A stretch of DNA of 64,000 nucleotides from Vigna angularis (taxonomy: Eukaryota > Streptophyta > Magnoliopsida > Fabales > Fabaceae), in assembly GCF_016808095.1 (NCBI RefSeq), contig NC_068970.1, positions 45,667,630-45,731,629 on the forward strand, read 5' to 3'. The notes below the pieces were generated by a model. It made no database searches and had not been told where the DNA came from. It saw only the letters and a program-made list of their open reading frames with translations. Made by a program: the position numbers and the translations under genes. Positions 20,288 through 56,402 of this stretch are shown here, piece after piece. Within the stretch, counting starts at the first letter, position 1; every line of letters begins with the position of its first letter.

Positions 20288-20292
20288 CTACC
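20288..20292. other. Left target-site duplication CTACC
   Basis: The five bases before the 5' LTR equal the five bases after the 3' LTR (40840-40844). Five base pairs is the duplication size made by plant LTR-retrotransposon integrases. Confidence 0.9.
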
Positions 20293-20451
20293 TGTCAACA
20301 CTCAATTTCGTCCGGGTTGATTAAATAAAATTTATTTTCACCAACAAAGGAAATAAATATCAAAAATACAAAAAAAGGGTATATAATAACAAAAATTAAA
20401 AAAATAAAATAAAATAGCAAAAAAAATAAATAATAAAAAAGGGGGGGTATC

Positions 20452-20830
20452 AAACGTTCGTCCAAATAGTGAGCGTACGTCCTTCCTCACTGTTGCTGAA
20501 AGCGTTCGTCCTTCCCCACTGTTGTTGAGGCCGTTCGTCCAAATTGTTCAACCGTTCGTCCAAACTGTTCAAGCGTTCGTCCTTCCCCACTGTTGCTGAG
20601 GCCGTTCGTCCAAATTGTTCAACCGTTCGTCCAAACTGTTCAACCGTTCGTCCTTCCCCACTATTCAACCGTTCGTCCTTCCAAATTGTTCAACCGTTCG
20701 TCCAAACTGTTCAACCGTTCATCCTTCCCCACTGTTCAACCGTTCGTCCTTCCTCACTGTTCAATCGTTCGTCCTTCACCATTGTTCAACCGTTCGTCCA
20801 AGCTGTTCAACCGTTCGTCCTCATCATCAA
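20452..20830 (+). repeat. CGTTCGTCC-based tandem array in the 5' LTR
   Basis: Units of 18-27 bp share CCGTTCGTCC followed by AAAYTGTTCAA or TTCCCCACTGTTCAA. The array is about 380 bp here and about 547 bp in the 3' LTR. Its translation in any frame is a repetitive artefact. Confidence 0.9.
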
Positions 20831-22024
20831 GCGTTCGGTCATGTTTGTTAACGTTCGGTTTTGATGCGTTTTGTGTTAGTGAGCGTTCAGTTTTATTGTT
20901 TTTCGAGCGTTCGGTTTTTGTTTGTTTAATGAGCGTTCGGTCATCACTTGAACGCTCGATTTCTCTTTTGAACGTTCGGTCTCCAGCGTTCGTATTTCTT
21001 GCGTTCGGTTTTGAACGCTATTCTACCACTCGTCCTCGCTATCCTGGCGCTCGTCCTAATCCTTCTGCCATTCGTCCAAATCGTCCTTAGTCTTCCGCGG
21101 CCGCTCGTCCTGATCTCCCGTGGCTCTAGGGCACCATCAACCTCCCATTACGATGAGTGCTCCACTCACCATTTCACAATCTCAGACCAACCCACTTCAT
21201 TATCATTGTCTACCTCTGACCTCACCACCTCCAGCACCGGACCTGCAAACAACCAAACCCGTGAACCACCACATCACCACCATTCAACCCAATTTCACCG
21301 TCCTCATCATCTCCTTCTACGTTCAACCTCCCTGCCACCACGACACACATTTTCTTCCTCTCCTCCAACCACGGCAGCTACCATCACCAGCCAACGCTTC
21401 ACGTCCAACTCCAGAAGTAGCGTCCAACAACCGTCCAGCACACACGGACAGCAGCTCCAGTTTCAATCAACTCATCTACACCAATTTCGGTTCACCATCC
21501 AACATGCACAGAAGAGGAAGCAACCACACGCACAGGGTGTCCACCGTATGAAGAAGAAGACAAGATTGAGGGGCCCTCACCCTGTTTTCTCACGGCCAAA
21601 AAACTGTAGCTCAGCATGCAAAAGAAAAGAGGGTCACGGGAAGATTTCTGAGTAGATTGGGAGGCTCACGGGTTCTAAGATTTGGCTATGAAAGAAGGCA
21701 AGCAGCAGAGGGAAAAGGGGGGGGAGACACCTGTGATGAAGACATCCCTTCCATCTTCACCTTACCTCACGGCTCCCAACCTACCATCCATATTCCCCAC
21801 TGTCACAGCCACCATAAGCAATTCCTCATTCTCATCATCCGATCTTGACCTCTCTGTTCAACCCTCTCTGATCACCTTCATCCTTACACACAGCCCATAT
21901 CATCACCATCACCATCAACACCAACACCCCCCACGGCCAACACCTTTCTTCCTCCATTTTCATCACCTCCAAACAATCCATTTTTCACCTTTACTCATCA
22001 TTTTCTCGTAATCGAATCAACTCA

Positions 22025-22789
22025 TTACACACAACAACACAGGCTTATTGTTTCCAATCCAATAGACAAAATGTGAAACAAGTGAATCACTACTGAATCA
22101 ATCAATAAAGGATAAAAAAAAGTGAAAAGAGGGAGAGTGATGCTGGCGGCACCAATCAGGAAACAAAGTCCGGCAAGGACAACGGTGGCCAGTTTTTGTC
22201 GCGGTGGCTGGTCTGGTTTGGAGGCGGCAGTCTGCACGTGCTGAGACGACGACTGTGGCTTGCGGCCTGAGTGCCGTTGTCGGCGGAGTCGTGGACCGGA
22301 TAGAAGACTCCCCGTAAGGGTCGTTTCGTCGTGGCGACTGGATCGGGGCTCGGCAGTGGCAGCAGTGGCCAGATCTAACAGTGACCCGTGACAGTCTCGG
22401 AGGCGGCGGCAGCCAGTATCAGTCCAGTGCAAATCTCCCGCGCGAGAAGAAAAGAAAGGGAGCTTGGAGCGGCGGCCGGCGGTGGTCTCGTCAAGGGGCA
22501 TCGGAAGTGGCGAAAACGCTGGTTGGAGCGGCGGCCGGCGAGCTGCTGGGAGAAGAAAGAGGCCCTGGATCTCTCTTAGATCTGGCGCGGAGAAGAACGG
22601 GAAGATTTTGAGACCCCTCCAAACCCTAAAAAAAAATAATAATAAAAGAGAAGGAACTTTATCTACACCCACGGTTTCATGTTTCACACCCCGTTTTCGT
22701 TTGGACTTAAAGCCCATTATGTGCAAACAAAATAAAAACAACCCTGGCAGCATTGACCCAAACAAAGGAGCATCAATTTCACACGTCAC
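22025..22789 (-). other. 254-codon open frame in the GC-rich part of the LTR, significance unclear
   Basis: The antisense frame (ATG at 22789) is open for 254 codons and is repeated identically in the 3' LTR at 38780-39544. The predicted product is Arg/Pro/Ser-rich in the middle, with a hydrophobic run LATVVLAGLCFLIGAASITL near the C-terminus. I recognise no family. The GC-rich base composition lowers stop frequency, so the length alone is weak evidence. It may be captured host sequence or chance. Confidence 0.2.
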
Positions 22790-23027
22790 TCCTGGTTTTA
22801 TCTCTACATCCCTGTCTTGTTTCTCTTGTTTTATTTTTAGGCTTTTGTATCTTTATTTTTATTATTTGTTTGGTTATTAAGTTTTTTTTTTACTGATGTA
22901 ACCCCTTGTAAGATACCCCACACCCCTTTGTTTTAGTGAATTTGTTCATTTCGTTTTATTTCAAAAAAGGAAAAAAAATGATAAATAATAAAAAATATAT
23001 AAAACATTAAAAAAACATTTAATGTAA

Positions 23028-23458
23028 TAAATCTCGGTATGAGTACTCGTGCGATCGTACGCATCAGCCTAGTACTTATTGCCCAAATATAAAATAAATA
23101 AAAAGCCGTGTGAGTGCTCGTGCGATCGTACGCATCAGCCTAGTACTCATTACGCAAAACAAAAGAAATAAAAAGCCGTGTGAGTGCTCGTGCGATCGTA
23201 CGCATCAGCCTAGTACTCATTACGCAAAACAATAAAAGGAAAAAAAAAGCCGTGTGAGTGCTCGTGCGATCGTACGCATCAGCCTAGTACTCATTACGCA
23301 AAAAATATGTTTCAAAGGTTTAGGCACATGTGTGATCGCACGCATCGTCCTTGTGCTAAAAACCTTTTCTCTTTTCTAAAATTAAAAATCCAAAAAAATA
23401 TGTTTTAAAGGTTTAGGCACATGTGTGATCGCACGCATCGTCCTTGTGCTAAAAACCT
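23028..23458 (+). repeat. Hairpin-forming tandem repeats in the 5' LTR
   Basis: Four units share GAGTRCTCGTGCGATCGTAC followed by GCATCAGCCTAGTACT; two further units share GGCACATGTGTGATCGCACG followed by CATCGTCCTTGTGCTAA. In each unit the ends can pair (GAGTACT with AGTACTC; GCACA with TGTGC). The same six units recur in the 3' LTR at about 39783-40213. Confidence 0.85.
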
Positions 23459-24086
23459 CTTCATTCTCCTAAATAAAAAATACCAAAAAATATAAAAATC
23501 TTCAAAACCTAAAAACATCTACTTTTCAAACAACAAACAATATCGCCTAGCAGAACTACGTGATCCTTGATTCTCCATCAAAAGTGGAGATACGTAGGAG
23601 CAAGGCCAGTCCTTGTCAAGCTCACTCTCCCAAAAATCCAAATCATTTTCCAAACAATTTTCCAAACAAATTTTCGAACAAGTTTCTCAAACAGTTTTCA
23701 AAAGAACTACGTAACCCTGATTTCTCACATGAGAATACGTAGGAGCAAGGTCAATCCTTGTCGGGCCCAAAAAAAACTAAAAAATATTGTTTGTTTCTTT
23801 AGAGTTTTATTTTAAGGGGAAGTTAAATACTTTGAAAACCACATCCACATTCGCACATTTAGTTAAAGGTACTGCCTTAGGGCAGGCGTTGTAGGGTGCT
23901 AATACCTTCCCTACACGTAACCGACTCCCGAACCAAGAATCTGGTTTAATTTGACCATGCCTTATCATTTTATGGTTTTTCCGTAGTTTTCCAGAATAAA
24001 CTATGGTGGCGACTCCAAAATCTCTTTTTCAATATTTTATTCTTTTATTTGGATCGTCGTCCCGTCGCGATTCCGGTTGCGACAGA

Positions 24087-24104
24087 TGGCGACTCCACTG
24101 GGGA
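24087..24104 (+). promoter_or_regulatory. Primer binding site for tRNA-Arg
   Basis: TGGCGACTCCACTGGGGA starts two bases after the LTR end. It is complementary to a plant tRNA-Arg 3' end of the type ...CCAGCGGAGTCGCCA with one mismatch. Ogre elements are known to use tRNA-Arg as reverse-transcription primer. Confidence 0.75.
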
Positions 24105-25280
24105 AGCCAGAGAGTCAGGCCATTTAATTAGATGTGCGAATTCAATGTGGTTTTTCTTTGTGTTTTTCTTCCCTTTCTTTTTCTTTATCTTTGTTGGATA
24201 TTTGTCATAATTGTATGTGTGTTTGTTTTGATTATATTGAACCCTAGGGTAGAAAACATGTTATATCTGCCTGGGAATTTTCTGGTTGTTTTGCAGGTGA
24301 GGGTTTGGGGTGTATAATTGCATTCTCCCTTCACACACACACATCATATGCATATCATGAGTGAGGCCCTATACCCGGGTCTGAGCGCAACTTAGAAATA
24401 GAGGGGTTGTGTAGCGGTGTCACTCTGGGATGTACTTCCTGTTTGGCTATCGTGAGAACCCCAGCCAGAGTCTGTTCTTTTCATTTGTGTCTCCACATCT
24501 AGTTGATTACTCTGACTGTTGTGGAGAAACAGTGAAAAGAGCCATAGCTCTGGTGGCCTGACTTAAGCATTAGGAAGCTATCCTTGTGAGTGCATATATT
24601 TGGCCTTAGAACTTCAGTCATCCAACCTTTGATAAGGCACAAAAGGGAGAAATGTGTTTTCCTATAACCCTCATGTTCGCTTAATAAAAATCACGCACCT
24701 TGTACATATCATCATATCTTTTTATCTTTTTTTCTTTCTTTCTTTTGCTTTTTCCTTTTTCTTCGCTCATTGTTTTTCTTCATAGTCTTGTCACATTTTG
24801 TGGATTCTAGTCAAAAATTATAAAGTTGTGATTAAGGCCCTTAAGCTAAAAAATGGAAATTAACATGGAATTTGAGTCAAGGGGTATAAGAATTTGGTGA
24901 GTTTGTCAGAGGGGAAGAATTTGGGAAAATATTAAATGCAAGTCTTGAGGCCAAAGCTCTATACAACTAAATCAGGCAATATACCCATGTCCCGTCCTGG
25001 CTGAAGTTTTATGGGACCCTTAATCGTTGTTACGAACTTAAAGAGGGAAAGATGTTATGTTGTCTACCAGTGGGTTATTTGTGGTTCATTTCCCGTGAGA
25101 CTGGAGACGCCTTAAATTCCCTGTACCCCATGGACGAATTATTGTAGTATGTAATCGATTACAAGGACATTGTAAACGATTACCCGAGAGAAAATTGGAT
25201 TTTGTACAAAAAGTCCATCACAGGTACTCAGTCAGGTGAACATGGGTCACCATTGGAAAAAGAAGTGACTTTTAGGCACT
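24105..25280 (+). other. Untranslated leader of the Ogre-like element
   Basis: No coding frame is credible. At 25147-25185 a pair of GTAATCGATTACA-like palindromes followed by a TTGTACAAAAA segment occurs; the same arrangement is found twice at 42.9-43.35 kb. Confidence 0.5.
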
Positions 25281-25317
25281 TTTGCGCTTGTCTTAGGTTG
25301 TTCCTTGTGAACCACAT

Positions 25318-26090
25318 GTGAAAAGAGTAAATGAATGGGCGCAACTTTGTGCAAGTTTAAATGAAGAGCAAGTTAAATGGTGTGTCCCTTGGGAGTATAG
25401 ATCGCAGATCACATATCATTGCGGGAGGTATCCTAATGTACCCCTAATGGGTATTAGGTGTTGTATTAATTGCAATCCTGTGTTAGCGCAAAAAATAATT
25501 TGAGTATCCTGAGAGGATCGCTAACACCTGCGTCTCTCGCCACATTGCAGATCATATGAGGAATGAATCTTCGCTGAAATGTTCCATCAAGTTAAAGACA
25601 ATTGGGGGCAATGTTGTTCGCTTCAATGAAAGGCCCAAGATCATGAACTATTAATGAAAGTTTCCCTTAGCCAATGAATCACAGAAAGGGTTAAGACAAT
25701 CAAGTTGTAATTAATTTCCCTTACCCAAATTGCGAAAAGAAATTTCAAAATGATGAGCAGTGGATAGAAGCAGCAATGACAAAACTAGAGAAGGAATGTT
25801 TCCATTTAGCTAAGAGGGAACATAAAAGATTGATTAGTCAGATGAAGAAAGAATATGTCATTGAACAAGGACAAGTTAAAGGAATTGGAAGAGAAGTCTC
25901 TCACAGCTGGCTTCCCTTGCCAATGGAGCCATTGAAAACGTCCTTAAGTTCTTAGTTGATGCTGAGTCTGTAATATCAATCATCAACCCGCCTAAGGGGA
26001 TTGAAACATTCCTCAATTACTGCAAGAAGCTGATCAGACAAATGAAGAATGTGATGACTAAAGCCTGCGATGGTTGACCAAGAATTCCTA
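25318..26090 (+). pseudogene. Relic of Ogre/Tat ORF1 (protein of unknown function upstream of gag)
   Basis: The frame at 25318-25503 contains VKWCVPWEYR, then YHCGRYPNVPLMGIRCCINC and NPVLA. I associate the combination of a Trp-rich PW segment, CG-x-x-PNVPLMG and INYNP with the extra protein (DUF7745-like) encoded before gag in many legume Ogre/Tat elements and in domesticated copies. Downstream to about 26090, Glu/Lys-rich pieces in shifting frames (for example LIRQMKNVM) look like its coiled-coil tail. Stops and frameshifts break it throughout. Intact ORF1 proteins are several hundred residues long; their role is unknown. The call is from memory of the family pattern and not from an alignment. 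Confidence 0.55.
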
Positions 26091-26237
26091 TGTCTCGCAT
26101 TTTGGGAACTTCTGAATGATGAATCACCTTATTGACTCAGTTTCGTGTTAATTTCCAAATTATACCGGGGCAATTATTTTCACAGCTTTATAATTTTTGA
26201 CTAAAGATTTTAAACTGCGTTGTGTGTTCTTTTCATT

Positions 26238-26238
<1 letters not shown>

Positions 26239-26272
<34 letters not shown>
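26239..26272 (+). repeat. Internal poly(A) tract of 34 A
   Basis: It lies between the ORF1 relic and gag. It may be replication slippage or a relic of a transcript end. Confidence 0.9.
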
Positions 26273-26274
<2 letters not shown>

Positions 26275-26329
26275 AAAATACAGCTAAACATCTAAGATAC
26301 CCTAAAGGACACGAACCAGTGGCAAAATC

Positions 26330-28266
26330 ATGGAGAACCAAGTAGAAGTTCAAGAAGGAATAGAAGCCGATATCCAACAGCTGAAGGAACAAATGAGACA
26401 AGTCTTAAGGACCCTGGATGCCTTACAAAGTCCTGGATGTTTATGCACACAACGATCACAACAAGGAGTTCCAGAAGCACGAACTTTCCCTTCCTATGGT
26501 CTTCCCCCCGAATTATACTCCACCCTCGGGAGTGGACTCGAGACATCTTGACACTCAAAAGGCCGAAGGTAATGCACGAGCCTGGGGCGTGATGATGAAA
26601 AAACAACCTGAGACGAAGTCTCCATCTTGTGTCATTACACCAGTAAATTTTAAGGATGATAAGAGCAGATTAGAAGTCCTTGAGAAGAGGTTGAGAGCCA
26701 TAGAGGGTGAAGGAAGTTTTGAATTTGGAGACGCTAAAAAACTACGTTTAGTTCCTGATGTGGTGATACCTCCAAAGTTCAGGCTGCCAGAGTTCGAGAA
26801 GTATCGGGGAAATACTTGCCCGAGGGGCCCTATAAGCATGTACTGCATGAAAATGGCAGCTTATGCCCGCAATGAAAAAACTTTTGATTCACTTCTTCCA
26901 AGAAAGTTTAACTGACGAGGCTCTAACTTGGCACATGCGCTTAGATACTACTCACATCTACTCATGGAAACATCTGGTTGAGACATTCCTAAGGCAGTAT
27001 GGATATGATAAAGATTTGACACCTGACAGAGCACAATTGCAGAACATGGTGAAGAAAGAATCTGAATCATTCAGAGAATATGCCCAAAGATGGAGAGAAA
27101 TTTCTGCTCAAGTAAAACCGCTTCTGAGCAACAAAAAGGTCACTACTGTATTTTTAAGTACTTTACAACCACCATGAACAATTAATAAGCAATGAGAGAT
27201 TGAAGGTGGAAGAGTCTCTGACAAGGTGTGGAGCCGAACCAAAGTGCAGAAACGCTCGACGCAAGCACACGGACAATCACCCTATGGACGACAGAGAGTA
27301 CCTCACTAAGAGCAGCGTGGGACGCTCGTCAAAACAACAACATGGGATGTTCGTCCAACGAGAGAGTTCAACGCTCGTCCAAGAGAAGTGGACGCTCGTC
27401 CACCAGAAGAGTTGGACGTTCGTTCGTGAAGTAGACGCTCGTGGATGCTTGCAGATGAGGACGTTCGCCCACCAAATTGAGTTGAACGCTCGTCCAGGTT
27501 GACACTCTTGACGCTCGTCCAAGAGAATCGGCCGCTCGACCTACATTATCAGGAGGACGCTCGTCCAGCACCAAGAGTTGGACGCTCGTCCGGCAACATA
27601 AGTTGACGCTCGTCTAAGTGGACGCTCGTCCTGAAAAACGCTCGACATAAGTGGACGCTCGTCAAGATATCGGTTCGTCAAGATTTCAGTGAACGCTCGG
27701 GCGCGATTTTTTCCAGAGAGCTTCATGCCCAGGCGCGAATGAGAGGGTGCCAGGCGCGACTTTTACCGATATGTCTATTTAACCTTAAGAGGCGGAGGGA
27801 AAAAACGTCTTTGGTTCGTTGGAGGCGAAATTTCACTGAAAGGAGAGCTTGGAGGACTGCTTGGGTCCTTCATCTTCTTGCATGGCCATGTTGCGTCCCT
27901 ACGGGTCCAATTGGGCATTGACCGAAGAAATTGCAAATCATGATGAGAAGGTCGACAACTTCACTCCGCTCCCCATGACCCATACCGAGCTATTGTTATA
28001 TCTTCTCCGCAGTAACCTCATCGAGGATTTGTCTAAATAGGCCTACACGACCCCCATACCCAAAGAACTAGGTCATAAATGCAAGGTGCGATTATCATGG
28101 AGGAGTGCGTGGACACTCAACAGAGGCACTCAAGGCTGTAAAACATAAAGTGCAATCTTTGATCGATTCAGTGGTCTTACATTTAGGATTTTTAAAGTTT
28201 GAAGAAAGTCAATTGAGCGTCGTGGCAAGGCTTGAGAATACCTCTACAAATGCCACAGACAAATGA
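26330..28266 (+). pseudogene. Broken gag of the Ogre-like element
   Basis: The start MENQVEVQEGIEADIQQLKE matches the usual coiled-coil N-terminus of plant Ty3/gypsy Gag. After a frameshift near 26430, a KFRLPEFEKYRG block (near 26775) marks the start of the capsid. A second frameshift near 26880 leads to a long capsid match with ESLTDEALTWH, WKHLVETFLRQYGYDKDLTP and ESFREYAQRWREISAQVKPL (to 27174). A repeat array (27245-27680) then intervenes. The C-terminal part resumes near 27930 with FTPLPMTHTELLLYL and, in another frame from 28078, ARCDYHGGVRGHSTEALKAV, the zinc-knuckle-like C-x-x-H-...-GH region, stopping at 28266. Gag normally forms the particle that packages the RNA. At least three frame changes, stops and the insertion make this copy unable to encode it. 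Confidence 0.85.
27245..27680 (+). repeat. Degenerate CGCTCGTCC array inside gag
   Basis: More than a dozen spaced copies of GACGCTCGTCC (variants GTTCGTCC, CGCTCGACC) lie between the capsid and C-terminal parts of gag. The core resembles the CGTTCGTCC array of the LTR, but spacers differ (AAGAGAA, AAGTGGA). Confidence 0.8.
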
Positions 28267-29119
28267 AGAGGTTTTGTTCGTGCTTTAAATCGTTTTGCTA
28301 TGAGGTTTATGCTCATTGATATCACACTTTCATCCATGACTGTTAATGTGAACTTTCATTACTTGGTATCCCCAAGGTTTACTGGGAATCATGTCCTAAT
28401 AGGGTGTCGTGAAAAAAAAAAACAAAAATAAAAAAAAAAACAAAAAAAATAAGGAAACAGATGAAAATCATGAGTCGCTTGTCTTTATTGCAAATTGCCA
28501 AACTCCTGTTTTTCAAAAATAGCAAATTTGAAAATAAAAAACAAGGTTAGAGTGACAGATTTTCCCGAATTTGTTGCGAGGCATGTTTTCCATCTTTACA
28601 GTGGTGTCAGCGTGTATTTCATCATGTTTTCCATCAAAGGCTTATCTTGAGCCCATTTCTTCGTTGTTTCATGCAAATAATTTTGAGTTTTACTCTCGTT
28701 CTCATTTTTTCGAAGTTAATTTTCCTTACTTTCCTTCATTGTAATTTTTTTTCAAAAGTCCTCTTCTTCTTTGTTTATTCGATTAGAATTTTTTTTCTTT
28801 GGACCAAATAAGAAGAAAAAGCACAAAAATCTAATTTCATTTCATCATCGGAGCAGGAAATTACAGTAAAGGTCGGATACACTTATACGATCTTGGCATC
28901 ATGATACATAAAATAAAAATGCATAAAAAAGAGAAAAAAGCAGATATAACAGAAAAGGTGCAAAGTCACAATTAAAAAAAAAGCAGCAAAAAAAAAAAAA
29001 GAAAAGCAAAAAAAAGCAAAGAAAATAAACAAAGGCAAATAAACAATGTTCGGGGTTCGATCACTGGTGATCGTTAAGTTACAGACCATGAAAATATCAA
29101 AATAATATAAAAGGGAAAT
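28267..29119 (+). other. Non-coding 3' region after gag
   Basis: A/T-rich with poly(A)-like runs at 28410-28450 and 28975-29035. In an autonomous relative, pol would start here; no pol motif is visible. Confidence 0.6.
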
Positions 29120-30655
29120 TCAGCGAAAAAATTCCCGAGCTGGTTGCGGTGGTCTGAGGGAGAGCTCCGTCGAGGGAGCTCTGGTCCGGAAGGTGAGAAG
29201 CATGGGTGGAGCGATTTGTCGTCCGTCCCTGTCGTCGTCAATGATGATCGGAACGGGGAACAAGTTCAGCAGCCTCGGCGCCCGCATGATCACCCAGTCG
29301 TATTCTTTCCAAAAAAAAAAAAAAAAAAAAAAACAAAGTAAAAAAATTTGTCAATAATAAGATGAGGAGAAATTTTCAAAAAAAAAAAGAAAGAAAGGAG
29401 ATGGAAGTGATCAGGGTGCTTACCATACATGTATAGCGGCAGTTGTGAAAACTGAGTGCCAGTAGGGTCTATCTCCGCTTGCAGCGCCTGACCCGATTGC
29501 CGTGGTTGTTAAACCAGCAGTGCACATTGTATTCGGTGACATCTGCGAAAACCCTTAGTCGAGACGCAATCTCGACGACTTGCGCTCTGCTGGGATGGGT
29601 GACCCCGTAATTGTAAATATTGGTCATCATTCTGACCTGATCGTCAGTAGGTCTCCACCGCTGACCGGTGTACCTATCCATCTCCATCTCGCTCATCTTT
29701 CTTCTCTAAGTTTTCTGAAACAAAAAAAATATATAAAAATAAAAAGAACAAAAACAAAACAAAAGCAAAAAAAAAAAAGTTTTTTCAGTGTTTTCTTTAC
29801 TCGTTTTTGTTTCCTTTTATGTTTATTTTGTTTGGTCGGTCTTTGTTATTTCAGTGTCCGGTCTCGGATATGTTTCACGGTCCTTGCAAGAGGGTCCTAA
29901 ACGGATCTATGTCCTTTTTGTCCTTGTCCTTTTGTCCTTGTCCATTTGTCCATGTTCGATTCATACTATTAAAATTATCTTTTTAAGTTTTCTGATTTTA
30001 TGGGGTACGTGGCGTTGTTCTACCCGATTGTCTCTGCCATACCTTCAATCGAAGGGAGATTAACGTCTGGTTTCCAGCCTATATACCCCTTAAGTTTAAG
30101 ACAGTTGTGTTTTTAAGTGTTTTGAGTTTTGTTTTTTAAATTAAAAAAAAAAGAGAAAAGAGAAAGAAGACTCAGAAAGAAAGGCAGAGAAAGGCGAGAA
30201 AGAAATAAAAGCAGACAAAGCAAAAAGCAGAAAAATAAATAAATAAATAAATGTGCAAGCATGAAAGAAAAGCGAAAAGGAAAGCATAAAAGAAAACAAA
30301 GAAAAGAAGAGCAGAAAGGAAATAAAAGGAAAACAGAAAGGGAAGAGGGGAAGGAAAGCAGGAAATAAAAAAGGGCAGAACGAAAAGAAGGACGGGAAAA
30401 CCGAATAACATAATGGAAAGAGAAAGCAGAAAAGAAAAACTGAAAGAGGAAAGGAAGAGCAAGAAAAGGAAAAACTTAAAGGAAAGAAAGAGGATTAAGA
30501 GCTTAGAGGACTTACCTGGAAGTGCAAGGCACACGGAAGCTCCTTGGAAGATACGGACGCCGTGGAAGGCGGGGACGGAGGAGCCTCGCAGAACTCAGAC
30601 GCTCAGAGAAAGAAGAGAGAAGGATAGAGAGAGAGCGAGATCGGGAAAATGTCGC
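29120..30655 (-). CDS. Antisense WOX-like homeobox gene carried by the retrotransposon (probably frameshifted)
   Basis: Proposed minus-strand structure: a leader exon (about 30650-30516, ending TTCCAG|GTAAGT), an intron, exon 2 (29714-29424; acceptor TTTGTTTCAG, donor TATG|GTAAGC) and exon 3 (29304-29120; acceptor after a T-rich tract). Exon 2 starts with ATG at 29696 and encodes a WUSCHEL-type homeodomain: QRWRPTDDQV, then IASRLRVF, NVHCWFNNHGNRVRR. W61, F62, N64 and R68 correspond to the WFQNHKAR recognition helix of WOX proteins, with changes at three variable or contact positions. In this frame a TAG (29469-29471) ends the protein at 75 residues. One frame over, the reading is open from near 29480 (QAEIDPTGTQFSQL) to the donor and joins exon 3 in phase. 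Exon 3 contains RLLNLFPVP, like the WUS box (TLxLFP), an acidic IIIDDDRDG and a partial EAR-like ELSL before TGA. WOX proteins are nuclear transcription factors in stem-cell control. I infer capture of a host WOX gene, with a small indel now splitting the frame. Confidence 0.6.
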
Positions 30656-30675
30656 TCGACCCCGAAGGGATAATC

Positions 30676-30682
30676 ATTTATA
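30676..30682 (-). promoter_or_regulatory. TATA box of the antisense WOX-like gene
   Basis: On the minus strand GGCTATAAATGATTATCC is followed after about 25-30 bases by a CT-rich leader (CTCGCTCTCTCTCTATCC) that runs into the proposed first exon. This is the classic plant TATA-plus-pyrimidine-patch arrangement. It is a sequence-based prediction only. Confidence 0.5.
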
Positions 30683-30689
30683 GCCTGAA

Positions 30690-31904
30690 ATTTCCCCCTG
30701 TTGCTACAGTTCCGGTCACTGCAACCGTTTGGTGTCGGTCTGATTTCTTTCTGAGTTTTTTTTTATAAAAAAAAAAAAAATTTGAAAATCTGAAAACGGG
30801 TAGGGTTTTGTTGGGTCGATCCGGCCCAATACCAGACTTCTTGGATGATCCGATTTCACCAAAAAAATAATAAAACAAAAAATCAAAAATGATAAATAGA
30901 AATTTTTCAAGAAAAAAATAATAAATGGAGTGATGTAAAATTTGAAGTGTTCAAAATTGTTTTCATTTGCATGATAAAGGACATTTTTCAGGTTCATTGG
31001 GCCTCATTGCCATGTAAGCCTTCTTTGAACCCAATTCTTTCTGAAATATAAATTTGAGTGAAGAATTATTTTGGCATGTTTGTAATTTCACATCACACCA
31101 TTTTGTTTGATTTTATTCCTTCTTCTTCTGCATTTTTGAATAAATCAAAAATATTGAGAAGGGAATAGTGCTCGAGCCCATTAAGCCCAATGGCCTTCGT
31201 GGTTTTCTCTCGAGCCTACTTCTTTTGAAAATATGTCAAAAATATTTTGTTTTCACATTTTTGATTTTGAATGATGTTTTGTACTTTTTTTCAAATTAGC
31301 TTGTGTAATTTTCTTTGCATTTGTAACAAAAAATTTGAGAATGAAAGATGAACAGTTTTTGAGCCCATTAGGCCCTTTGTCATATGTGGTTTCTCTTGAA
31401 CTGATGCATCTGAATTTTTGAAAAAAATACATGTTTGTGTGGATTTTGTGTTTTCGATTCATAATTTCCCTTTTTATTTGTATGAACAAGTATTTGTGCA
31501 AAAAAATAAAAATAAAGGAATTCAGACCCTTGTCTGAAGATTTTTGTCACGATTGCAAGAAGAACAGTGTTGGGCCCGTTGAGTCTAGTTGTGTTGCAAA
31601 ATTTTCTTTAGTTCAATCTTGTGATTTCCTCTCATAACAAAAAATGATGAATTTCTTTTAGCTTGTTCCGTAAACTATGAAAAATGAAAAATGTTTTCTT
31701 TGTCATCTTCTGGTGTTAAGTTCACACGGCTCAGGTCATCTGATCCATTGGGTCAATGTGCCTGGTAAGTCCAACCTCCTTCTATGTTACTTCTCCTCGG
31801 GGCCGATCCGATCTGGATTTTCCCATGTCATAAAGTAACCAAAAAAAAAACTTTTTTATTTTTCAAACGTTTTTTTCTCTAAATCAAAATTTTCTCATAT
31901 CATT
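30690..31904 (+). other. Non-coding 3' region of the element
   Basis: Loose repeats of a GAGCCCATTRRGCCC-type phrase occur near 31172 and 31360, with variants near 30995 and 31575, separated by AT-rich spacers. No credible frame is present. Confidence 0.4.
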
Positions 31905-32515
31905 TCCTGCATTGCTCACCAAGCCTAGTTTCTGCACTGGTTCCCAAGCCTTTGTTTCCATTTTAGCTCTCAAATCTTATTTCCCATACTGGTCTGCAAA
32001 GCTCAGTTTCCATACTGACCCGCAAGGCCCAGTTTCCACATTGGCCGAAAAAAAATCTCAGATGCCACAAAAAAAAAATCTCTCAATGTCCACATTAGCC
32101 CAGCAAGCCCGTTTCCTATACTGGTCTGCAAAGCTCAGTTCCCATGCTGACCCACAGGATCCAGTTTCCATTGGCCAAAAAAAAAAATCCCATTTTCCAC
32201 TGGCCAAGAAATCCCATTTTCCCCAATAGCTCACAAATCCTATTTCCCATAATGGCCCACCAAGCTCAGTTTCCCTACTGACCCACAAAAGCCCAGTTCC
32301 TACACTGGCCCATAAAAGCCCAGTTCCTACACTGGCCCATAAAAGCCCAGTTCCTACCCTGGCCCCAAAAGCCCAGTTTTCACACTGGCCCCAAAAGCCC
32401 AGTTTTCACACTGGCCCTCTAAGCCCAGCTCACACTAGCCCTCTAAGCCCAGCTCACACTGGCCCGTAAGCCCAGTTCTCACACTGGCCCCCAAGCCCAG
32501 TGTTCATACTGGCCA
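31905..32515 (+). repeat. Tandem repeat with AAGCCCAGTTYC-CACTGGCCC units
   Basis: About 20 units of roughly 24-30 bp share CCCAGTT(T/C)C followed by ACACTGGCCC. The units at 32285-32500 are the most regular, those at 31905-32100 the most diverged. Confidence 0.85.
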
Positions 32516-33756
32516 CCATACGTAATTTTCTCTTAAAAAAAAAAAAAATCTGTTTTTCAACTAGTATCATCATTTTCATTTCATTTTACTTTTCTTCATG
32601 CATAAAATCAAAAAAATACGCAAAAGTTGAGTCATTTGTTTTCGATGCAAATCATCCATTTTATGAGATTTCAAAAAAATATAATGGATGTCATAATCTC
32701 CTGGAGTCAAATGATCAAATCACATATTCTTAAGGGATATTTGTATGTGCATTGCTTGAAAGCATCATCCTTTAGCCTTCGCTATACCAATAGATTGGCC
32801 CAATCATGTTCTTGAGCCCAATTGATAAACACCAAGTTTTACACTGGGGCAGATTTTCCTTTACCTCCACTAGCGTTCATTTGGGAGATTCCTGAATCCG
32901 TTAGGGCAAGAAAAAAATGAAAATGAAAAAATGATGAATGACTCTTGTTGAGATCATTTAATCTTGTCTCCTAACTAATCTTTTGAAAATGAAACAACCA
33001 ATATTTGAAATGACGTGTGGCCATTTTTTTTCTTCATCCAAAAAAAAAAAAAAAACAAAAATATATCCTTAGATACCCAATTTGAGCCAATAGGAAATTT
33101 CTTTTCAGAATTTTACCCAAACAAGGGTTACCATCACGGTAGAAGTCTACTCAAATTGCAAGAGGAACACACTCAGTGATCAAATGAAGAAAATTCCTCA
33201 AAAGTGAAGCAAAAATGCAAAGAATCACAAAGTGATGGCGAGCAAAGAATGAAATTTGAGAAAGGGCAAAATAGTCAAAACAGTTTTGACGAATAATTGA
33301 TACAAAGTATAGATGGTAACTCTTGTTTTTCAAAAAAATACCCACAAAAATTTATTTGAACCTTTATATCTTTTCTTTCAATACCCTTTAGCCCAGGCCA
33401 CATTACAAGCCCAATAAAAGTCCACACAGATTGAATACTGGTTGCTTAAATTTTCATAAAGCTTAATTTTGAGACAAGACAAAAATGACCAACAATGCAA
33501 TCAAAAAAAAAATAAAAAAAATGATGAAAAAAAATGTCCTCGGATGAAGGGAACTCCCTATTGATCAAAATTATACAAAGGAAAATCGAACCATTTGGGG
33601 CAATCTGTTCAAGCCAATCCTTTCCATATCCATCACAAATTCTTGAACACATTCAAATCCCATCCAAACTCTTCCCCCGAGTCCCAAACTTGGGGCAACT
33701 TTGTAAGCTCTTCATAACCTTTTCGCCTGTTCTTCCAAACTGGGGCAACTATGTGA

Positions 33757-34400
33757 GTTTCATATGTTTCGGCCCGGCCCATTCAGAATACTGGTCGACT
33801 TTGTCAATCTCACATTTGTTTCATCTGTATATTCAAAGTTCGTACCAAGACCGGGGCATCCCTTGTTGGGCCTCTCAGATTGGTCCGTACTGAAATTCAT
33901 AAATCCACCCTCAAAACAGGGGCAGACGCTTTGGGGCATCCTTTGTATGATTTTGAGTCCATCTTATCATTCGTAAACCCAAAGTGGGGGGCAACTTCTT
34001 TTGGAACCTCGCTTAATTGACTCATGCCCAAAACCAAGGCGTGACTTTCATATGCTTCAGCCCATTCAGAATATGGTGCAACTTTGTTTGTCTCACATTT
34101 GTTTCATCTGTATACTCAAACTTCGTACCAGGACCGGGGCATCCCTTGTTGGGCCTCTCAGATTTGTCCGTACTGAAATTCATAAATCCACCCTCAAAAC
34201 AGGGGCAGACGCTTTGGGGCATCCTTTGTATGATTTTGAGTCCATCTTATCATTCGTAAACCCAAAGTGGGGGGCAACTTCTTGTGGAACCTCGCTTAAT
34301 TGACTCATACCCAAAACCAAGGCGTGACTTTCATATGCTTCAGCCCATTCAGAATATTGAGCAATTTTGTTAAATCTCAAAATTTTTTTCATCTGAACAT
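33757..34400 (+). repeat. Tandem repeat of about 285-290 bp, 2.3 copies
   Basis: The unit CAGCCCATTCAGAATA...GGGGCATCCCTTGTTGGGCC...CCAAAACCAAGGCGTGAC begins near 33765, 34056 and 34342. The first two copies are highly similar. A related GGGGCAACT motif is scattered upstream from 33690. Confidence 0.85.
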
Positions 34401-35367
34401 TCAAAGCTCATACAAAGACTGAGGCATCCCTTGTTGAGCCTTGCATGATCTTGGTTCGCCCCGAACTTCAGAAATCCATCACCACCAAAATTGGGGCAAT
34501 TTGCAAAACCCCCATGATATTCTCACTCCCCGGGTTCATGACTTATTCCCTCACAATTCACAGATACATTTGTCCATGCAAATACTTTTAGCATGCTCCA
34601 AACTGGAGCAGCTTCTGGGTATCTACTACTTCACAATGGCCTTTGTAGCCGTTTTAAGGAGTAAGAGGCTCGAGTGGCCCACCCGGTACTCTCCAAATCC
34701 TTCCAATCATCCTCCACATATTTTTCCAACCCCTGATATCAAGCATGTACACACTAGTATCTCGTCAAGAAATGCGTAGCACACAAGCTTCATTTTGCAC
34801 AGTTGACTTTAGGATTGGACATCCATTGAAGGAAATTGGAAGTCTAGATCGTCATAAATTTGATGATTTCAAAGAAAGCAAATTGACTCAAAAAAAAAAA
34901 ATGTCATAGTTTCATAATCTTCCAATACATCATGTACGTATTTTCATCAACTTTGAATTTGCCTCCATGTATTCATCAAATTTTCTTCTTCAAAAAGACA
35001 AAAAAATGCATCAAAGTTTTCCTCTCTAATTTCAAAAATTTCACCAAATTTTTCTTCCTTCAAAAAGAAAAAAATGCATCAAAGTTTTCCCTTCCATGTA
35101 TATTACATCATTTTTTCTTCCTTCAAAAAGACAAAAAAAATCAACATTCATCAAAGTTTTCTTCTCTAAATTTCAAAATTTTCATCAACCAAGTTTCTCT
35201 TGCATATCAAGATTCCATACTTGTACAAAAATGCAACACCTTGTTTCTTAATTTCAAAATTTTCCAAAAAAAAAAAATCAATCAAAATCAAAAAAATTTT
35301 CAACATCTCAAAATTTCAACCAATTCCAATTGTCAATTTCAAAGCAATCAAACATTTTTCTCTCTGC

Positions 35368-36330
35368 CATTTTATCTCGGCCATCTGCAAGATAATGGTC
35401 GAAACCTTTTGTTCTGTTTTTTTATCTCGGCCATCTGCTAGATAATGGTCGAGCGCACTTTTCAATTTTGTTTTATCTCGGCCATCTGCAAGATAATGGT
35501 CGAAAGCACCTTTTCAATTTTGTTTTATCTCGACCATCTGCAAGATAATGGTCGAAAGCACCTTTTGTTCTGTTTTTTATCTCGGCCATCTGCTAGATAA
35601 TGGTCGAGCGCACGTTTCAATTTTGTTTATCTCGGCCATCTGCAAGATAATGGTCGAAAACACCTTTTCATTTTTGTTTTATCTCGACCATCTGCAAGAT
35701 AATGGTCGAAAGCACCTTTTGAGTTTTGTTTTATCTCGGCCATCTGCAAGATAATGGTCGAGCGCACTTTTCTTTTGTTTTACCTCGGCCATCTGCTAGA
35801 TAATGGTCGATCGCACTTTGTTCAATTCCATTTTATCTCGACCATCTGCAAGATAATGGTCGAAAGCACCTTTTGAGTTTTGTTTTATCTCGGCCATCTG
35901 CAAGATAATGGTCGAGCGCACTTTTCAGTTTTGTTTTACCTCGGCCATCTGCTAGATAATGGTCGATCGCACTTTGTTCAATTCCATTTTATCTCGGCCA
36001 TCTGCTAGATAATGGTCGAAAGCACCTTTTGAGTTTTGTTTTATCTCGGCCATCTGCAAGATAATGGTCGAGCGCACTTTTCAGTTTTGTTTTATCTCGG
36101 CCATCTGCTAGATAATGGTCGAAAGCATCTTTTGAGTTTTGTTTTATCTCGGCCATCTGCAAGATAATGGTCGAGCGCACTTTTTCAGTTCCATTTTATC
36201 CCGGCCATCTGCAAGATAATGGTCGAAAGCAGTTTTCAGTTTTATTTTGTCTCGACCCTCTGCATGGCAATGGTCAGGTACAGAGTTTAATTTTTTTTCA
36301 AACGACCCTCTGCATGACAATGGTCGAACC
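35368..36330 (+). repeat. Tandem array of about 52 bp, about 19 copies, each with an inverted repeat
   Basis: Each unit contains TCGRCCAT, a 10-base CTGCWAGATA spacer, then ATGGTCGA, followed by a variable AAGCACCTTTTG...TTTTATC segment. The arms form an 8-bp stem. Two diverged units at the end carry CTGCATGRCA. Tandem repeats in this 3' position are a known feature of Ogre elements and a source of plant satellites. Confidence 0.9.
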
Positions 36331-36479
36331 CAATCAAATTCAAATTTCTCATTCATTTAATCTTGTTCATTTTATTTGAAAAAAAAACAAAAAAAAAAAC
36401 AACAAACAAATTTTTTTTTTAATTAATTCAAAAAAATTTTCCTGTTTGTTCCTGTTTCTTTGTCATTGAAAATTCTCTG

Positions 36480-36640
36480 TTTTTCCTTGTGTATTTTGAA
36501 ATCCGAACGAAATTAATATTTCTATCTTTACTTATCTTTTACTCTGATAATATGAAAACTTTGTTTATCATATGATCTAGTAAAATCTAAGTAAAGAGGG
36601 GCAACACTCAATTTCGTCCGGGTTGATTAATAAATTTACT
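36480..36640 (+). repeat. Tandem duplicate of the polypurine tract and LTR start
   Basis: The sequence from about 36498 (TGAAATCC, TTACTTATCTTTTACTCTGA, ..., AGAGGGGC) is repeated 276 bp downstream at about 36774-36880. Directly after the upstream tract, CAACACTCAATTTCGTCCGG and about 12 further bases reproduce the LTR start without its first TGT. Confidence 0.85.
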
Positions 36641-36867
36641 TTTATAAAAAAAAAAAAATATTTCCTCGTTCACTGCATCTGTAGCATTGGTGGACCTTCC
36701 ACGAGGTTGTCGCACTTCATTTCTCTCAGCTTTGTTTGTTTGTTTTATTCTATGTTTGTTTCTTGTTCATCTTGAAATCCAGACGAAATTGGTATTTCTA
36801 TCTTTACTTATCTTTTACTCTGATAATATGAAAACTTTGTTTATCATATGATCTAGTAAAATCTAAG

Positions 36868-36881
36868 TAAAGAGGGGCAGC
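36868..36881 (+). promoter_or_regulatory. Polypurine tract
   Basis: AAAGAGGGGCAGC directly precedes the 3' LTR (TGTCAACAC at 36882), the position of the plus-strand DNA primer in LTR retrotransposons. Confidence 0.85.
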
Positions 36882-37039
36882 TGTCAACACTCAATTTCGT
36901 CCGGGTTGATTAAATAAAATTTATTTTCACCAACAAAGGAAATAAATATCAAAAATACAAAAAAAGGGTATATAATAACAAAAATTAAAAAAATAAAATA
37001 AAATAGCAAAAAAAATAAATAATAAAAAAGGGGGGTATC

Positions 37040-37585
37040 AAACGTTCGTCCAAATAGTGAGCGTACGTCCTTCCTCACTGTTGCTGAAAGCGTTCGTCCT
37101 TCCCCACTGTTGCTGAGGCCGTTCGTCCAAATTGTTCAACCGTTCGTCCAAACTGTTCAAGCGTTCGTCCTTCCCCACTGTTGCTGAGGCCGTTCGTCCA
37201 AATTGTTCAACCGTTCGTCCAAACTGTTCAACCGTTCGTCCTTCCCCACTGTTCAACCGTTCGTCCTTCACCATTGTTCAACCGTTCGTCCAAATTGTTC
37301 AACCGTTCGTCCTTCCAAATTGTTCAACCGTTCGTCCAAACTGTTCAACCGTTCGTCCTTCCCCACTGTTCAACCGTTCGTCCTTCACCATTGTTCAACC
37401 GTTCGTCCAAACTGTTCAACCGTTCGTCCTTCCTCACTGTTCAACCGTTCGTCCTTCACCATTGTTCAACCGTTCGTCCTTCCCCACTGTTCAACCGTTC
37501 GTCCTTCCTCACTGTTCAATCGTTCGTCCTTCACCATTGTTCAACCGTTCGTCCAAGCTGTTCAACCGTTTGTCCTCATCATCAA
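37040..37585 (+). repeat. Expanded CGTTCGTCC array in the 3' LTR
   Basis: Same units as at 20452-20830, with about eight more CGTTCGTCC units. Confidence 0.9.
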
Positions 37586-39782
37586 GCGTTCGGTCATGTT
37601 TGTTAACGTTCGGTTTTGATGCGTTTTGTGTTAGTGAGCGTTCAGTTTTATTGTTTTTCGAGCGTTCGGTTTTTGTTTGTTTAATGAGCGTTCGGTCATC
37701 ACTTGAACGCTCGATTTCTCTTTTGAACGTTCGGTCTCCAGCGTTCGTATTTCTTGCGTTCGGTTTTGAACGCTATTCTACCACTCGTCCTCGCTATCCT
37801 GGCGCTCGTCCTAATCCTTCTGCCATTCGTCCAAATCGTCCTTAGTCTTCCGCGGCCGCTCGTCCTGATCTCCCGTGGCTCTAGGGCACCATCAACCTCC
37901 CATTACGATGAGTGCTCCACTCACCATTTCACAATCTCAGACCAACCCACTTCATTATCATTGTCTACCTCTGACCTCACCACCTCCAGCACCGGACCTG
38001 CAAACAACCAAACCCGTGAACCACCACATCACCACCATTCAACCCAATCTCACCGTCCTCATCATCTCCTTCTACGTTCAACCTCCCTACCACCACGACA
38101 CACATTTTCTTCCTCTCCTCCAACCACGGCAGCTACCATCACCAGCCAACGCTTCACGTCCAACTCCAGAAGTAGCGTCCAACAACCGTCCAGCACACAC
38201 GGACAGCAGCTCCAGTTTCAATCAACTCATCTACACCAATTTCGGTTCACCATCCAGCATGCACAGAAGAGGAAGCAACCACACGCACAGGGTGTCCACC
38301 GTATGAAGAAGAAGACAAGATTGAGGGGCCCTCACCCTGTTTTCTCACGGCCAAAAAACTGTAGCTCAGCATGCAAAAGAAAAGAGGGTCACGGGAAGAT
38401 TTCTGAGTAGATTGGGAGGCTCACGGGTTCTGAGATTTGGCTATGAAAGAAGGCAAGCAGCAGAGGGAAAAGGGGGGGGAGACACCTGTGATGAAGACAT
38501 CCCTTCCATCTTCACCTTACCTCACGGCTCCCAACCTACCATCCATATTCCCCACTGTCACAGCCACCATAAGCAATTCCTCATTCTCATCATCCGATCT
38601 TGACCTCTCTGTTCAACCCTCTCTGATCACCTTCATCCTTACACACAGCCCATATCATCACCATCACCATCAACACCAACACCCCCCACGGCCAACACCT
38701 TTCTTCCTCCATTTTCATCACCTCCAAACAATCCATTTTTCACCTTTACTCATCATTTTCTCGTAATCGAATCAACTCATTACACACAACAACACAGGCT
38801 TATTGTTTCCAATCCAATAGACAAAATGTGAAACAAGTGAATCACTACTGAATCAATCAATAAAGGATAAAAAAAAGTGAAAAGAGGGAGAGTGATGCTG
38901 GCGGCACCAATCAGGAAACAAAGTCCGGCAAGGACAACGGTGGCCAGTTTTTGTCGCGGTGGCTGGTCTGGTTTGGAGGCGGCAGTCTGCACGTGCTGAG
39001 ACGACGACTGTGGCTTGCGGCCTGAGTGCCGTTGTCGGCGGAGTCGTGGACCGGATAGAAGACTCCCCGTAAGGGTCGTTTCGTCGTGGCGACTGGATCG
39101 GGGCTCGGCAGTGGCAGCAGTGGCCAGATCTAACAGTGACCCGTGACAGTCTCGGAGGCGGCGGCAGCCAGTATCAGTCCAGTGCAAATCTCCCGCGCGA
39201 GAAGAAAAGAAAGGGAGCTTGGAGCGGCGGCCGGCGGTGGTCTCGTCAAGGGGCATCGGAAGTGGCGAAAACGCTGGTTGGAGCGGCGGCCGGCGAGCTG
39301 CTGGGAGAAGAAAGAGGCCCTGGATCTCTCTTAGATCTGGCGCGGAGAAGAACGGGAAGATTTTGAGACCCCTCCAAACCCTAAAAAAAAATAATAATAA
39401 AAGAGAAGGAACTTTATCTACACCCACGGTTTCATGTTTCACACCCCGTTTTCGTTTGGACTTAAAGCCCATTATGTGCAAACAAAATAAAAACAACCCT
39501 GGCAGCATTGACCCAAACAAAGGAGCATCAATTTCACACGTCACTCCTGGTTTTATCTCTACATCCCTGTCTTGTTTCTCTTGTTTTATTTTTAGGCTTT
39601 TGTATCTTTATTTTTATTATTTGTTTGGTTATTAAGTTTTTTTTTTACTGATGTAACCCCTTGTAAGATACCCCACACCCCTTTGTTTTAGTGAATTTGT
39701 TCATTTCGTTTTATTTCAAAAAAGGAAAAAAAATGATAAATAATAAAAAATATATAAAACATTAAAAAAACATTTAATGTAA

Positions 39783-40213
39783 TAAATCTCGGTATGAGTA
39801 CTCGTGCGATCGTACGCATCAGCCTAGTACTTATTGCCCAAATATAAAATAAATAAAAAGCCGTGTGAGTGCTCGTGCGATCGTACGCATCAGCCTAGTA
39901 CTCATTACGCAAAACAAAAGAAATAAAAAGCCGTGTGAGTGCTCGTGCGATCGTACGCATCAGCCTAGTACTCATTACGCAAAACAATAAAAGGAAAAAA
40001 AAAGCCGTGTGAGTGCTCGTGCGATCGTACGCATCAGCCTAGTACTCATTACGCAAAAAATATGTTTCAAAGGTTTAGGCACATGTGTGATCGCACGCAT
40101 CGTCCTTGTGCTAAAAACCTTTTCTCTTTTCTAAAATTAAAAATCCAAAAAAATATGTTTTAAAGGTTTAGGCACATGTGTGATCGCACGCATCGTCCTT
40201 GTGCTAAAAACCT
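39783..40213 (+). repeat. Hairpin-forming tandem repeats in the 3' LTR
   Basis: Copy of the 23028-23458 array, with the same four plus two units. Confidence 0.85.
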
Positions 40214-40839: not shown

Positions 40840-40844
40840 CTACC
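40840..40844. other. Right target-site duplication CTACC
   Basis: Matches 20288-20292 exactly. Confidence 0.9.

Positions 40845-56340: not shown

Positions 56341-56344
<4 letters not shown>

Positions 56345-56402
<58 letters not shown>
56345..56402. repeat. (TA)n microsatellite
   Basis: About 29 TA units. Confidence 0.95.

What the first reader, a model, noticed from the sequence alone, without database searches (positions are those of the whole stretch)
29120..30685. Antisense WUSCHEL-like homeobox gene inside an Ogre-like retrotransposon
Opposite to the direction of the element lie, in order, a TATA box, a CT-rich leader, a strong GT donor, a homeodomain exon with the WOX signature (RW-PT...RLR.F...NV..WFNNH...R) and a second coding exon joined in the correct phase that contains LNLFPV, close to the WUS box, and an EAR-like ELSL. 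Homeodomain plus WUS box in the same order as in WOX proteins makes chance very unlikely. Extra and antisense ORFs are known in Tat elements, but I know of no description of one derived from a stem-cell regulator. The element could spread a WOX-type repressor, or antisense RNA against its own transcripts. A small indel near 29480 appears to split the frame in this copy.
Basis: partly seen in the sequence, partly recalled or inferred. Interest (0 to 1): 0.88.

Follow-up and report, generated by a model that had tools for sequence, protein, structure and literature searches.

The report
WUSCHEL-type gene riding a bean retrotransposon
A recently inserted jumping element in the genome of an adzuki-type bean carries, on its opposite strand, a gene descended from the plant stem-cell regulator family WUSCHEL/WOX; this copy is broken, but intact relatives exist and their DNA-reading helix appears to be kept by selection.

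Summary
Observation confirmed. On the minus strand, 29120-30682 holds a TATA box, leader, two introns and two coding exons of a WOX gene: homeodomain Pfam E 3.2e-8, WUSCHEL/STENOFOLIA best in PDB, then WUS-box-like LLNLFPVP and EAR-like ELSLR. It lies inside a 20.5-kb LTR element (TSD CTACC; LTRs differ at 8 of 3792 aligned bases) with gag but no detectable pol. This copy's frame breaks after the homeodomain; 59 sister clusters, all named Vigna angularis, include intact ~152-aa proteins. Eight sister proteins carry element sequence from outside the coding exons. Two further subfamilies occur in V. angularis, V. umbellata and V. radiata; one keeps the strict WUS box. Within the window's subfamily the recognition helix is constrained (6 changes, 31-34 expected); WUS box and EAR are not. 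WOX amplification between LTRs in other Vigna species is already in print, as one paragraph of a 2023 meeting report (PMC10714607). New here: antisense gene anatomy, gag-only carrier, subfamilies, constraint. Expression and function are untested.

The parts
20288..20292 (.). target-site duplication CTACC (left)
   Evidence: matching 5 bp outside TG...CA ends
20293..24084 (+). 5' LTR
   Evidence: self-BLAST, 98.0% over 3653 columns counting gaps; aligned to the 3' LTR: 8 mismatches, all transitions, in 3792 ungapped columns, plus 168 gap columns
24087..24104 (+). putative primer binding site TGGCGACTCCACTGGGGA
   Evidence: position just inside the 5' LTR; tRNA partner not tested
25004..25695 (+). 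DUF7745 domain, upstream of gag, in two frames
   Evidence: PF24924: 1.6e-18 at 25321-25695; a second piece in another frame, 4.1e-5, below the Pfam cut-off, at 25004-25096
26409..27177 (+). gag, frame probably broken
   Evidence: PF03732 1e-14 on ORF 26851-27177, 1.4e-12; the overlapping ORF 26409-26915 in another frame looks like its upstream part but has no Pfam match, so the break is inferred
29120..29304 (-). WOX exon 3: WUS-box-like LLNLFPVP, EAR-like STELSLRPP, stop at 29122-29120
   Evidence: same order in sister proteins; no Pfam match of its own
29305..29423 (-). intron 2 (GTAAGC...AAAG), 119 nt
   Evidence: P0026 (A), P0067 and P0069 (B) and P0083 (C) read through an intron at the same aligned place
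29424..29714 (-). WOX exon 2: ATG at 29696, WOX homeodomain; frame lost after RVRR in this copy
   Evidence: Pfam 3.2e-8; STENOFOLIA 1.9e-11, WUSCHEL 5e-11
29715..30515 (-). intron 1 (GTAAGT...TTTCAG) in the 5' untranslated region
   Evidence: predicted from sequence, no RNA
30516..30675 (-). untranslated leader exon 1, CT-rich; start site not mapped
   Evidence: homologous leader in sister proteins P0047, P0056, P0058, P0060
30676..30682 (-). TATA box TATAAAT
   Evidence: sequence
31964..36275 (.). tandem-repeat arrays between the WOX gene and the 3' LTR
   Evidence: TRF; the part at about 31.8-32.5 kb recurs in sister proteins P0017, P0057, P0058, P0060
36882..40839 (+). 3' LTR
40840..40844 (.). 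target-site duplication CTACC (right)

Best explanation
This is one copy of a non-autonomous, gag-bearing LTR retrotransposon of an Asian Vigna that has captured a WUS-clade WOX gene and carries it antisense to its own RNA, with the gene's own promoter and introns. SHOWN: element ends and TSD, no detectable pol, WOX homeodomain, WUS-box-like and EAR-like motifs in the WOX order, many dispersed sister genes of which eight show the same element sequence beside them, two more distant subfamilies, and protein-level constraint on the DNA-recognition helix. INFERRED: because the gene is antisense, its introns are not removed when the element's RNA is copied, so it stays an expressible gene. Intact copies would make a small nuclear protein that binds TGA/TGAA-type sites through the residues equivalent to WUS R38, N90 and R94, and represses target genes through the WUS box and EAR motif (TOPLESS recruitment, known for WUS/WOX proteins; recalled). 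Acting in trans, it would change host or element transcription in favour of heritable transposition, so a copy with a broken WOX frame can still move.
For: Homeodomain. AlphaFold model: helices 18-29, 37-47 and 55-76, block pLDDT 82-94 for residues 11-70; ranks 1-11 of the PDB fold search are WUS or STENOFOLIA homeodomains. Element. Sister copies: 58 clusters, each named V. angularis, four with 30-62 members, one more; 27 of 59 cover at least 90% of P0002. Element sequence beside the gene: 6 of 83 sister proteins at E<=1e-4, plus P0047 (8e-6) and P0056 (4e-4) among 10 tested against the leader. Base-reading residues: R13 in 51 of 52, N64 in 51 of 52, R68 in 50 of 51 rows that cover the site, equivalent to the WUS base readers in PMC7203112 (passages). 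Recognition helix: 6 changes against 30.7-33.5 expected, reached in 0 of 20,000 simulations in each of three mutation settings. Homeodomain, WUS box and ELSLR in the same order in A, B and C; strict TL[DEQP]LFP[GITVL] in 8 of 11 C proteins. Tree: A plus window 100/100, A plus B 97/91.
Against: No RNA evidence. The window's own copy is broken. In the same test the WUS box (11 changes, 12.3-12.4 expected) and EAR region (13, 14.2-15.4 expected) show no significant constraint within A, and the whole homeodomain is only slightly low (93 against about 107, P 0.04-0.05); with the strongest CpG setting the overall unevenness over sites (59 unchanged sites, variance 4.12) lies inside the simulated range. 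The strict WUS box and LSLRL are absent from all 59 A proteins. Residues that contact the DNA backbone in WUS are changed (K82 to Y, Y86 to C, K92 to G) and Q89 is N. Known WUS/STF sites are not convincingly enriched in the LTRs or antisense promoter. Only predicted proteins were available, so dN/dS was not measured, and annotation favours open frames. The AlphaFold model is poor outside the homeodomain (mean pLDDT 65.9, pTM 0.43).
Confidence: 0.68

Rival explanations
1. Passenger: the element picked up a host WOX gene by chance and amplifies it with no benefit; the protein does nothing for the element, and apparent conservation is recent common descent.
For: This insertion is young and its WOX frame is broken, so a copy without an intact WOX frame either moved or was broken soon after moving; WUS box and EAR are not constrained within A.
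Against: Recent descent would spread changes by mutability, yet helix 3 has 6 of about 31-34 expected; subfamilies B and C, 33-49% identical to P0002, keep the same three modules in order.
Confidence: 0.2
2. The useful product is antisense RNA: transcription from the WOX promoter runs towards gag and tunes the element's own sense RNA or small RNAs; the protein is incidental.
For: Orientation and own TATA box; PMC7264820 discusses dsRNA roles of antisense ORFs (passages).
Against: Amino-acid constraint is concentrated on the DNA-reading helix, which an RNA role does not predict.
Confidence: 0.12
3. The protein mainly binds the element's own LTR or promoter and acts as a self-regulator, like retroviral antisense regulators.
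For: Regulatory roles are proposed for antisense proteins of Grande and Retand elements (PMC7264820, PMC11963269, passages); TGAnnnnnTCA is weakly in excess next to the WOX gene (z 2.3 at 27950-29119, z 2.1 at 30661-31700).
Against: No significant enrichment of TGAA pairs, TTAATSS or G-boxes in either LTR (largest z 1.7), and the weak excess is expected among the 90 comparisons made.
Confidence: 0.2
4. An ordinary host WOX gene into or beside which an element inserted; no mobile gene family.
For: Sister genes are annotated as host genes, some named WOX2, WOX4, WOX5-like or WOX8-like.
Against: The gene lies between paired LTRs with a TSD; sister proteins on different chromosomes and scaffolds carry element sequence from outside the coding exons.
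Confidence: 0.03

Closest known systems
LTR-flanked WOX amplification in Vigna marina and V. riukiuensis (talk by K. Naito, in PMC10714607; section 7 read)
   Same: WOX genes in many copies (over 1000 in V. riukiuensis), mostly between identical LTRs with target-site duplications, same genus; may be the same element family
   Different: That section gives no orientation, gene structure, element class, domain content or selection test; the species named differ from those found here
Antisense additional ORFs of plant LTR elements: maize Grande gene23, rice RIRE2, Silene Retand (PMC7264820, PMC11963269; passages)
   Same: Antisense gene before the 3' LTR, own promoter in Grande, tandem repeats in about half of the Retand elements, predicted DNA-binding product
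   Different: Those encode TRP28, Smc and other domains or unrecognised proteins; 'homeo', 'WUSCHEL' and 'WOX' occur 0 times in both main texts. No pol was found in this carrier
Orchid Ty3/gypsy (Tat) elements with a captured AlkB RNA demethylase (PMC9289625; passages)
   Same: Additional ORF with a recognisable enzyme domain kept in a large Tat element
   Different: Different domain; gag-pol present there
WUS-clade WOX transcription factors (WUSCHEL, STENOFOLIA)
   Same: WOX homeodomain, base-reading residues, WUS box then EAR order
   Different: Mobile and multicopy; altered backbone-contact residues; about 152 aa; WUS box and EAR altered in subfamily A
Rosa WOX expansion, 381 genes, 364 in Rosa-only clades (PMC11405225; section 3.2 read, other passages)
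   Same: Many dispersed WOX copies, most of clade V with a WUS box and an EAR-type end, no collinear pairs within rose
   Different: 'transposon' occurs 0 times in its main text; origin unexplained; sequences not examined here

Membership tests
WOX homeodomain family | WOX-type homeodomain | tested here: met
   PF00046 3.2e-8; WUS and STENOFOLIA are the best matches by sequence and fold
WOX homeodomain family | base-reading R, N, R (WUS R38, N90, R94) | tested here: met
   51 of 52, 51 of 52, 50 of 51 subfamily A rows covering the site; present in the window copy
WUS clade of WOX | strict WUS box TL[DEQP]LFP[GITVL] | tested here: not met
   0 of 59 A, 0 of 13 B, 8 of 11 C; A and B have LLxLFP. 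Descent from the WUS clade is inferred through C
WUS clade of WOX | C-terminal EAR-like motif | tested here: met
   ELSLR-like in 39 of 59 A, 10 of 13 B, 9 of 11 C, partial proteins included; LSLRL in 0 of 59, 9 of 13, 7 of 11
LTR retrotransposon | paired LTRs TG...CA with TSD | tested here: met
Ogre/Tat lineage (autonomous) | reverse transcriptase, RNase H and integrase of the Tat type | tested here: not met
   no pol domain in six frames of 24100-36901
Ogre/Tat lineage (origin) | extra ORF upstream of gag, long LTRs, antisense ORF, repeats before the 3' LTR | tested here: inconclusive
   DUF7745 upstream of gag, 3.8-4.0-kb LTRs, repeats; that these mark Ogre is recalled, not tested
Ogre/Tat lineage (origin) | primer binding site for tRNA-Arg | not tested
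   putative site at 24087-24104 seen; tRNA not compared
Expressed spliced gene | minus-strand spliced RNA | not testable with these tools
   no RNA data available

The most novel reading that the evidence does not exclude
A retrotransposon lineage has turned a plant stem-cell regulator into its own accessory gene: intact copies supply in trans a WUS-type repressor that acts in the meristem, the tissue from which new insertions are inherited, either holding cells in a stem-like state or repressing silencing genes, and non-autonomous broken copies ride on it.
Probability: 0.2. Interest if true: 0.92.

Novelty: new member of a known kind. Interest (0 to 1): 0.62.

Why it matters
Antisense genes are common in large plant retrotransposons, and the review and survey looked at (passages) leave their function open. 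Here the antisense product has a recognisable, structurally understood domain with a known type of target site, so the question 'what do antisense genes do for retrotransposons' becomes testable by binding and expression experiments. It also means that genes annotated as WUSCHEL-related in adzuki bean include transposon genes, which distorts gene-family counts and claims of adaptive expansion.

Tried and rejected
Chance similarity was rejected. A complete Ogre was rejected: no pol in six frames (the other matches listed there were weak and below their cut-offs). An antisense ORF repeated in both LTRs (22025-22852 and 38780-39607, minus; only the first tested) gave no Pfam match. Self-regulation through known WUS or STF sites was not supported. 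A scan of IMG/VR found no relative (30 stretches matched a pattern, none confirmed). Rfam: 0 matches in the window at gathering scores. The bacterial promoter/terminator scan of 30400-31000 does not apply to plant promoters and was not used. The preprint behind the meeting report is not held. Paper searches. Papers opened by term search and found not to bear on the question: PMC5501002, PMC6982007, PMC13175896, PMC12786077.

Rows dropped: alignment A1 held 48 of the 58 proteins; the tree used 29 of 59 A, 12 of 13 B and 10 of 11 C plus the window and two PDB stretches (the root rests on those two, each filling 45% of the columns); the constraint test used the 30 of 59 A rows covering at least 85% of P0002 plus the window's pieces. 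One search also listed P0052, whose match only runs on from exon 2 into intron 1; I did not count it. The division into A, B and C is mine, by identity and by eye; P0070 and P0084 are partial and were not in the tree. Species: 80 of 83 clusters are named V. angularis, two V. umbellata and one V. radiata, going by the first name shown for each cluster. Host WOX genes did not appear among the hits, so the donor gene was not identified. The window's own species is inferred from these hits.

Full report
OBSERVATION. The homeodomain exon matches PF00046 at 3.2e-8. Against PDB sequences its two best matches are STENOFOLIA (1.9e-11) and WUSCHEL (5e-11); the next is at 0.26. The last exon has no Pfam match. 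The frame of this copy is lost just after RVRR.

THE CARRIER. Self-comparison and end inspection give LTRs at 20293-24084 and 36882-40839 with TG...CA ends and a CTACC target-site duplication. They differ at 8 of 3792 ungapped aligned bases, all transitions; 168 further columns are gaps. At 1.3e-8 changes per site and year (a rate recalled, not looked up) this is about 80,000 years. Inside, six-frame Pfam scans of 24100-36901 find DUF7745 and Retrotrans_gag on the plus strand and the homeodomain on the minus strand; the other matches are weak, below their cut-offs and none is a polymerase, integrase, RNase H or protease. DUF7745 lies in two frames, the smaller piece below its cut-off; gag seems split as well, though only its second ORF has a Pfam match. 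The element is therefore taken as non-autonomous. That DUF7745 upstream of gag points to Ogre is recalled and was not tested.

SISTER COPIES. A search with the window's peptide pieces, joined with X, gave 58 protein clusters among 66 candidates, each named Vigna angularis, four with 30 to 62 members, on many chromosomes and scaffolds. Of 59 such clusters (one more), 27 cover at least 90% of the 152-residue P0002. A profile of nine of them returned 72 of 1814 candidates, and a profile of seven distant ones 39 of 1459. Together there are 83 sister clusters, which I divide by identity and by eye into A (59, the window's), B (13) and C (11). V. umbellata (P0076, P0080) and V. radiata (P0068) occur in B and C only. 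Some predicted sister proteins run into element sequence: 6 of 83 match the window element outside the WOX exons at E<=1e-4, among them P0003, whose tail is 96% identical to 24343-24188 minus, about 100 bp inside the 5' LTR (the P0038 match is to repetitive sequence and is weaker; P0052, which only runs on into intron 1, is not counted). In a looser test of 10 proteins, P0047, P0056, P0058 and P0060 match the untranslated leader. So the WOX unit travels with the element in several copies. This was seen for 8 of 83; for the rest it was not seen, many having no sequence beyond the WOX frame to test.

ARCHITECTURE AND DESCENT. The three subfamilies keep homeodomain, then WUS box, then ELSLR. C has the strict TL[DEQP]LFP[GITVL] box in 8 of 11 and LSLRL in 7 of 11; B mostly has LLDLFPIP; among the 41 A rows covering the site the commonest are LLDLFPIP (17), LLDLFPVP (14) and, as in the window, LLNLFPVP (6). 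In the tree, A plus the window is one group at 100/100, A plus B at 97/91, C at 94/90; B is not one group, since P0066 falls beside A; the root rests on two PDB homeodomains only. Read-through proteins P0026 (A), P0067 and P0069 (B) and P0083 (C) show an intron at the same aligned place, so the common ancestor probably had it; a gene antisense to the element's RNA would keep it through retrotransposition. The donor host gene was not found. Whether B and C also sit in LTR elements was not tested.

FUNCTIONAL SIGNS. The WUS-DNA structures give R38, N90 and R94 as base readers, with a less clear role for Q89 (PMC7203112, passages); STENOFOLIA uses the same three (PMC8329861, passages). In subfamily A the equivalents are kept in 51 of 52, 51 of 52 and 50 of 51 rows, while Q89 is N, K92 is G, K82 is Y and Y86 is C. 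A parsimony count over 30 A proteins and the window's pieces, compared with neutral mutability of the window's codons, gives 6 changes in helix 3 (55-71) against 30.7-33.5 expected, below all 20,000 simulations in each of three mutation settings. Of eight regions tested only this one is strongly low: the whole homeodomain is slightly low (93 against about 107, P 0.04-0.05), and the WUS box, EAR, linker, spacer and ends are not. With the strongest CpG setting the number of unchanged sites (59) and the variance over all sites lie within the simulated range. The result depends on predicted, mostly open proteins and on one tree; dN/dS could not be measured. The AlphaFold model has helices 18-29, 37-47 and 55-76, with block pLDDT 82-94 for residues 11-70 and a low-confidence tail (mean 65.9, pTM 0.43); ranks 1-11 of the PDB fold search are WUS or STENOFOLIA homeodomains, two of them at E<=0.001.

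MECHANISM. Most likely, intact copies express a small nuclear WOX protein that reads TGA-type sites and, if its motifs still work, represses through TOPLESS; it would act in trans for the element family, which explains why a recent copy can have a broken WOX frame. The DNA-binding step is inferred from conserved residues and constraint. Repression is inferred from motifs, and within A it may be decaying. The target is unknown; known WUS or STF sites are not convincingly enriched in the LTRs or the antisense promoter.

KNOWN OR NEW. The antisense-ORF review and the Retand survey contain no 'homeo', 'WUSCHEL' or 'WOX' in their main text. Ten paper searches were made. One result is decisive: a 2023 meeting report says that V. 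marina and V. riukiuensis have amplified WOX genes, over 1000 in V. riukiuensis, mostly between identical LTRs with TSDs (PMC10714607, section 7). The preprint it cites is not held, nor are most subscription papers. The phenomenon is therefore not new; its anatomy, its presence in V. angularis-type genomes, the three subfamilies and the constraint on the recognition helix were not found in the texts looked at. I file it as a new member of a known kind.

Noticed in passing
proteins P0049, P0061, P0064, P0065, P0068, P0072, P0074-P0076, P0080, P0081: Vigna proteins named WOX1 PFS2-like, WOX2, WOX4, WOX4-like, WOX5-like, WOX6-like, WOX7-like or WOX8-like belong to this multicopy family; such names may inflate counts of host WOX genes.
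   Followed up: partly
Rosa chinensis, PMC11405225: 364 of 381 reported rose WOX genes form Rosa-only clades with no collinear pairs; most of clade V has a TLPLFPMHGED box, and 359 of the 364 showed almost no expression during rooting. This looks like an independent, perhaps mobile, WOX amplification.
   Followed up: no
window 12718-13455 and 41361-41963 (+): Two open frames on either side of the element share, by eye, a repeated motif like FNN.G.G.Q.F..A.I; possibly related host genes or repeats. The second gave no Pfam match.
   Followed up: no
window 55652-57916 and 60457-63179: Second pair of direct repeats, 77-85% identical, about 5 kb apart; nature not determined.
   Followed up: no
window 20503-20821 and 37060-37576: Tandem repeats with units near 25 and 71 bp at the start of both LTRs, in arrays of different length, which probably account for most gap columns between the LTRs.
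   Followed up: no
subfamily A residues 49-54 (just before helix 3): Several of these sites change more often than most homeodomain sites, next to the nearly invariant helix 3; cause unknown.
   Followed up: no
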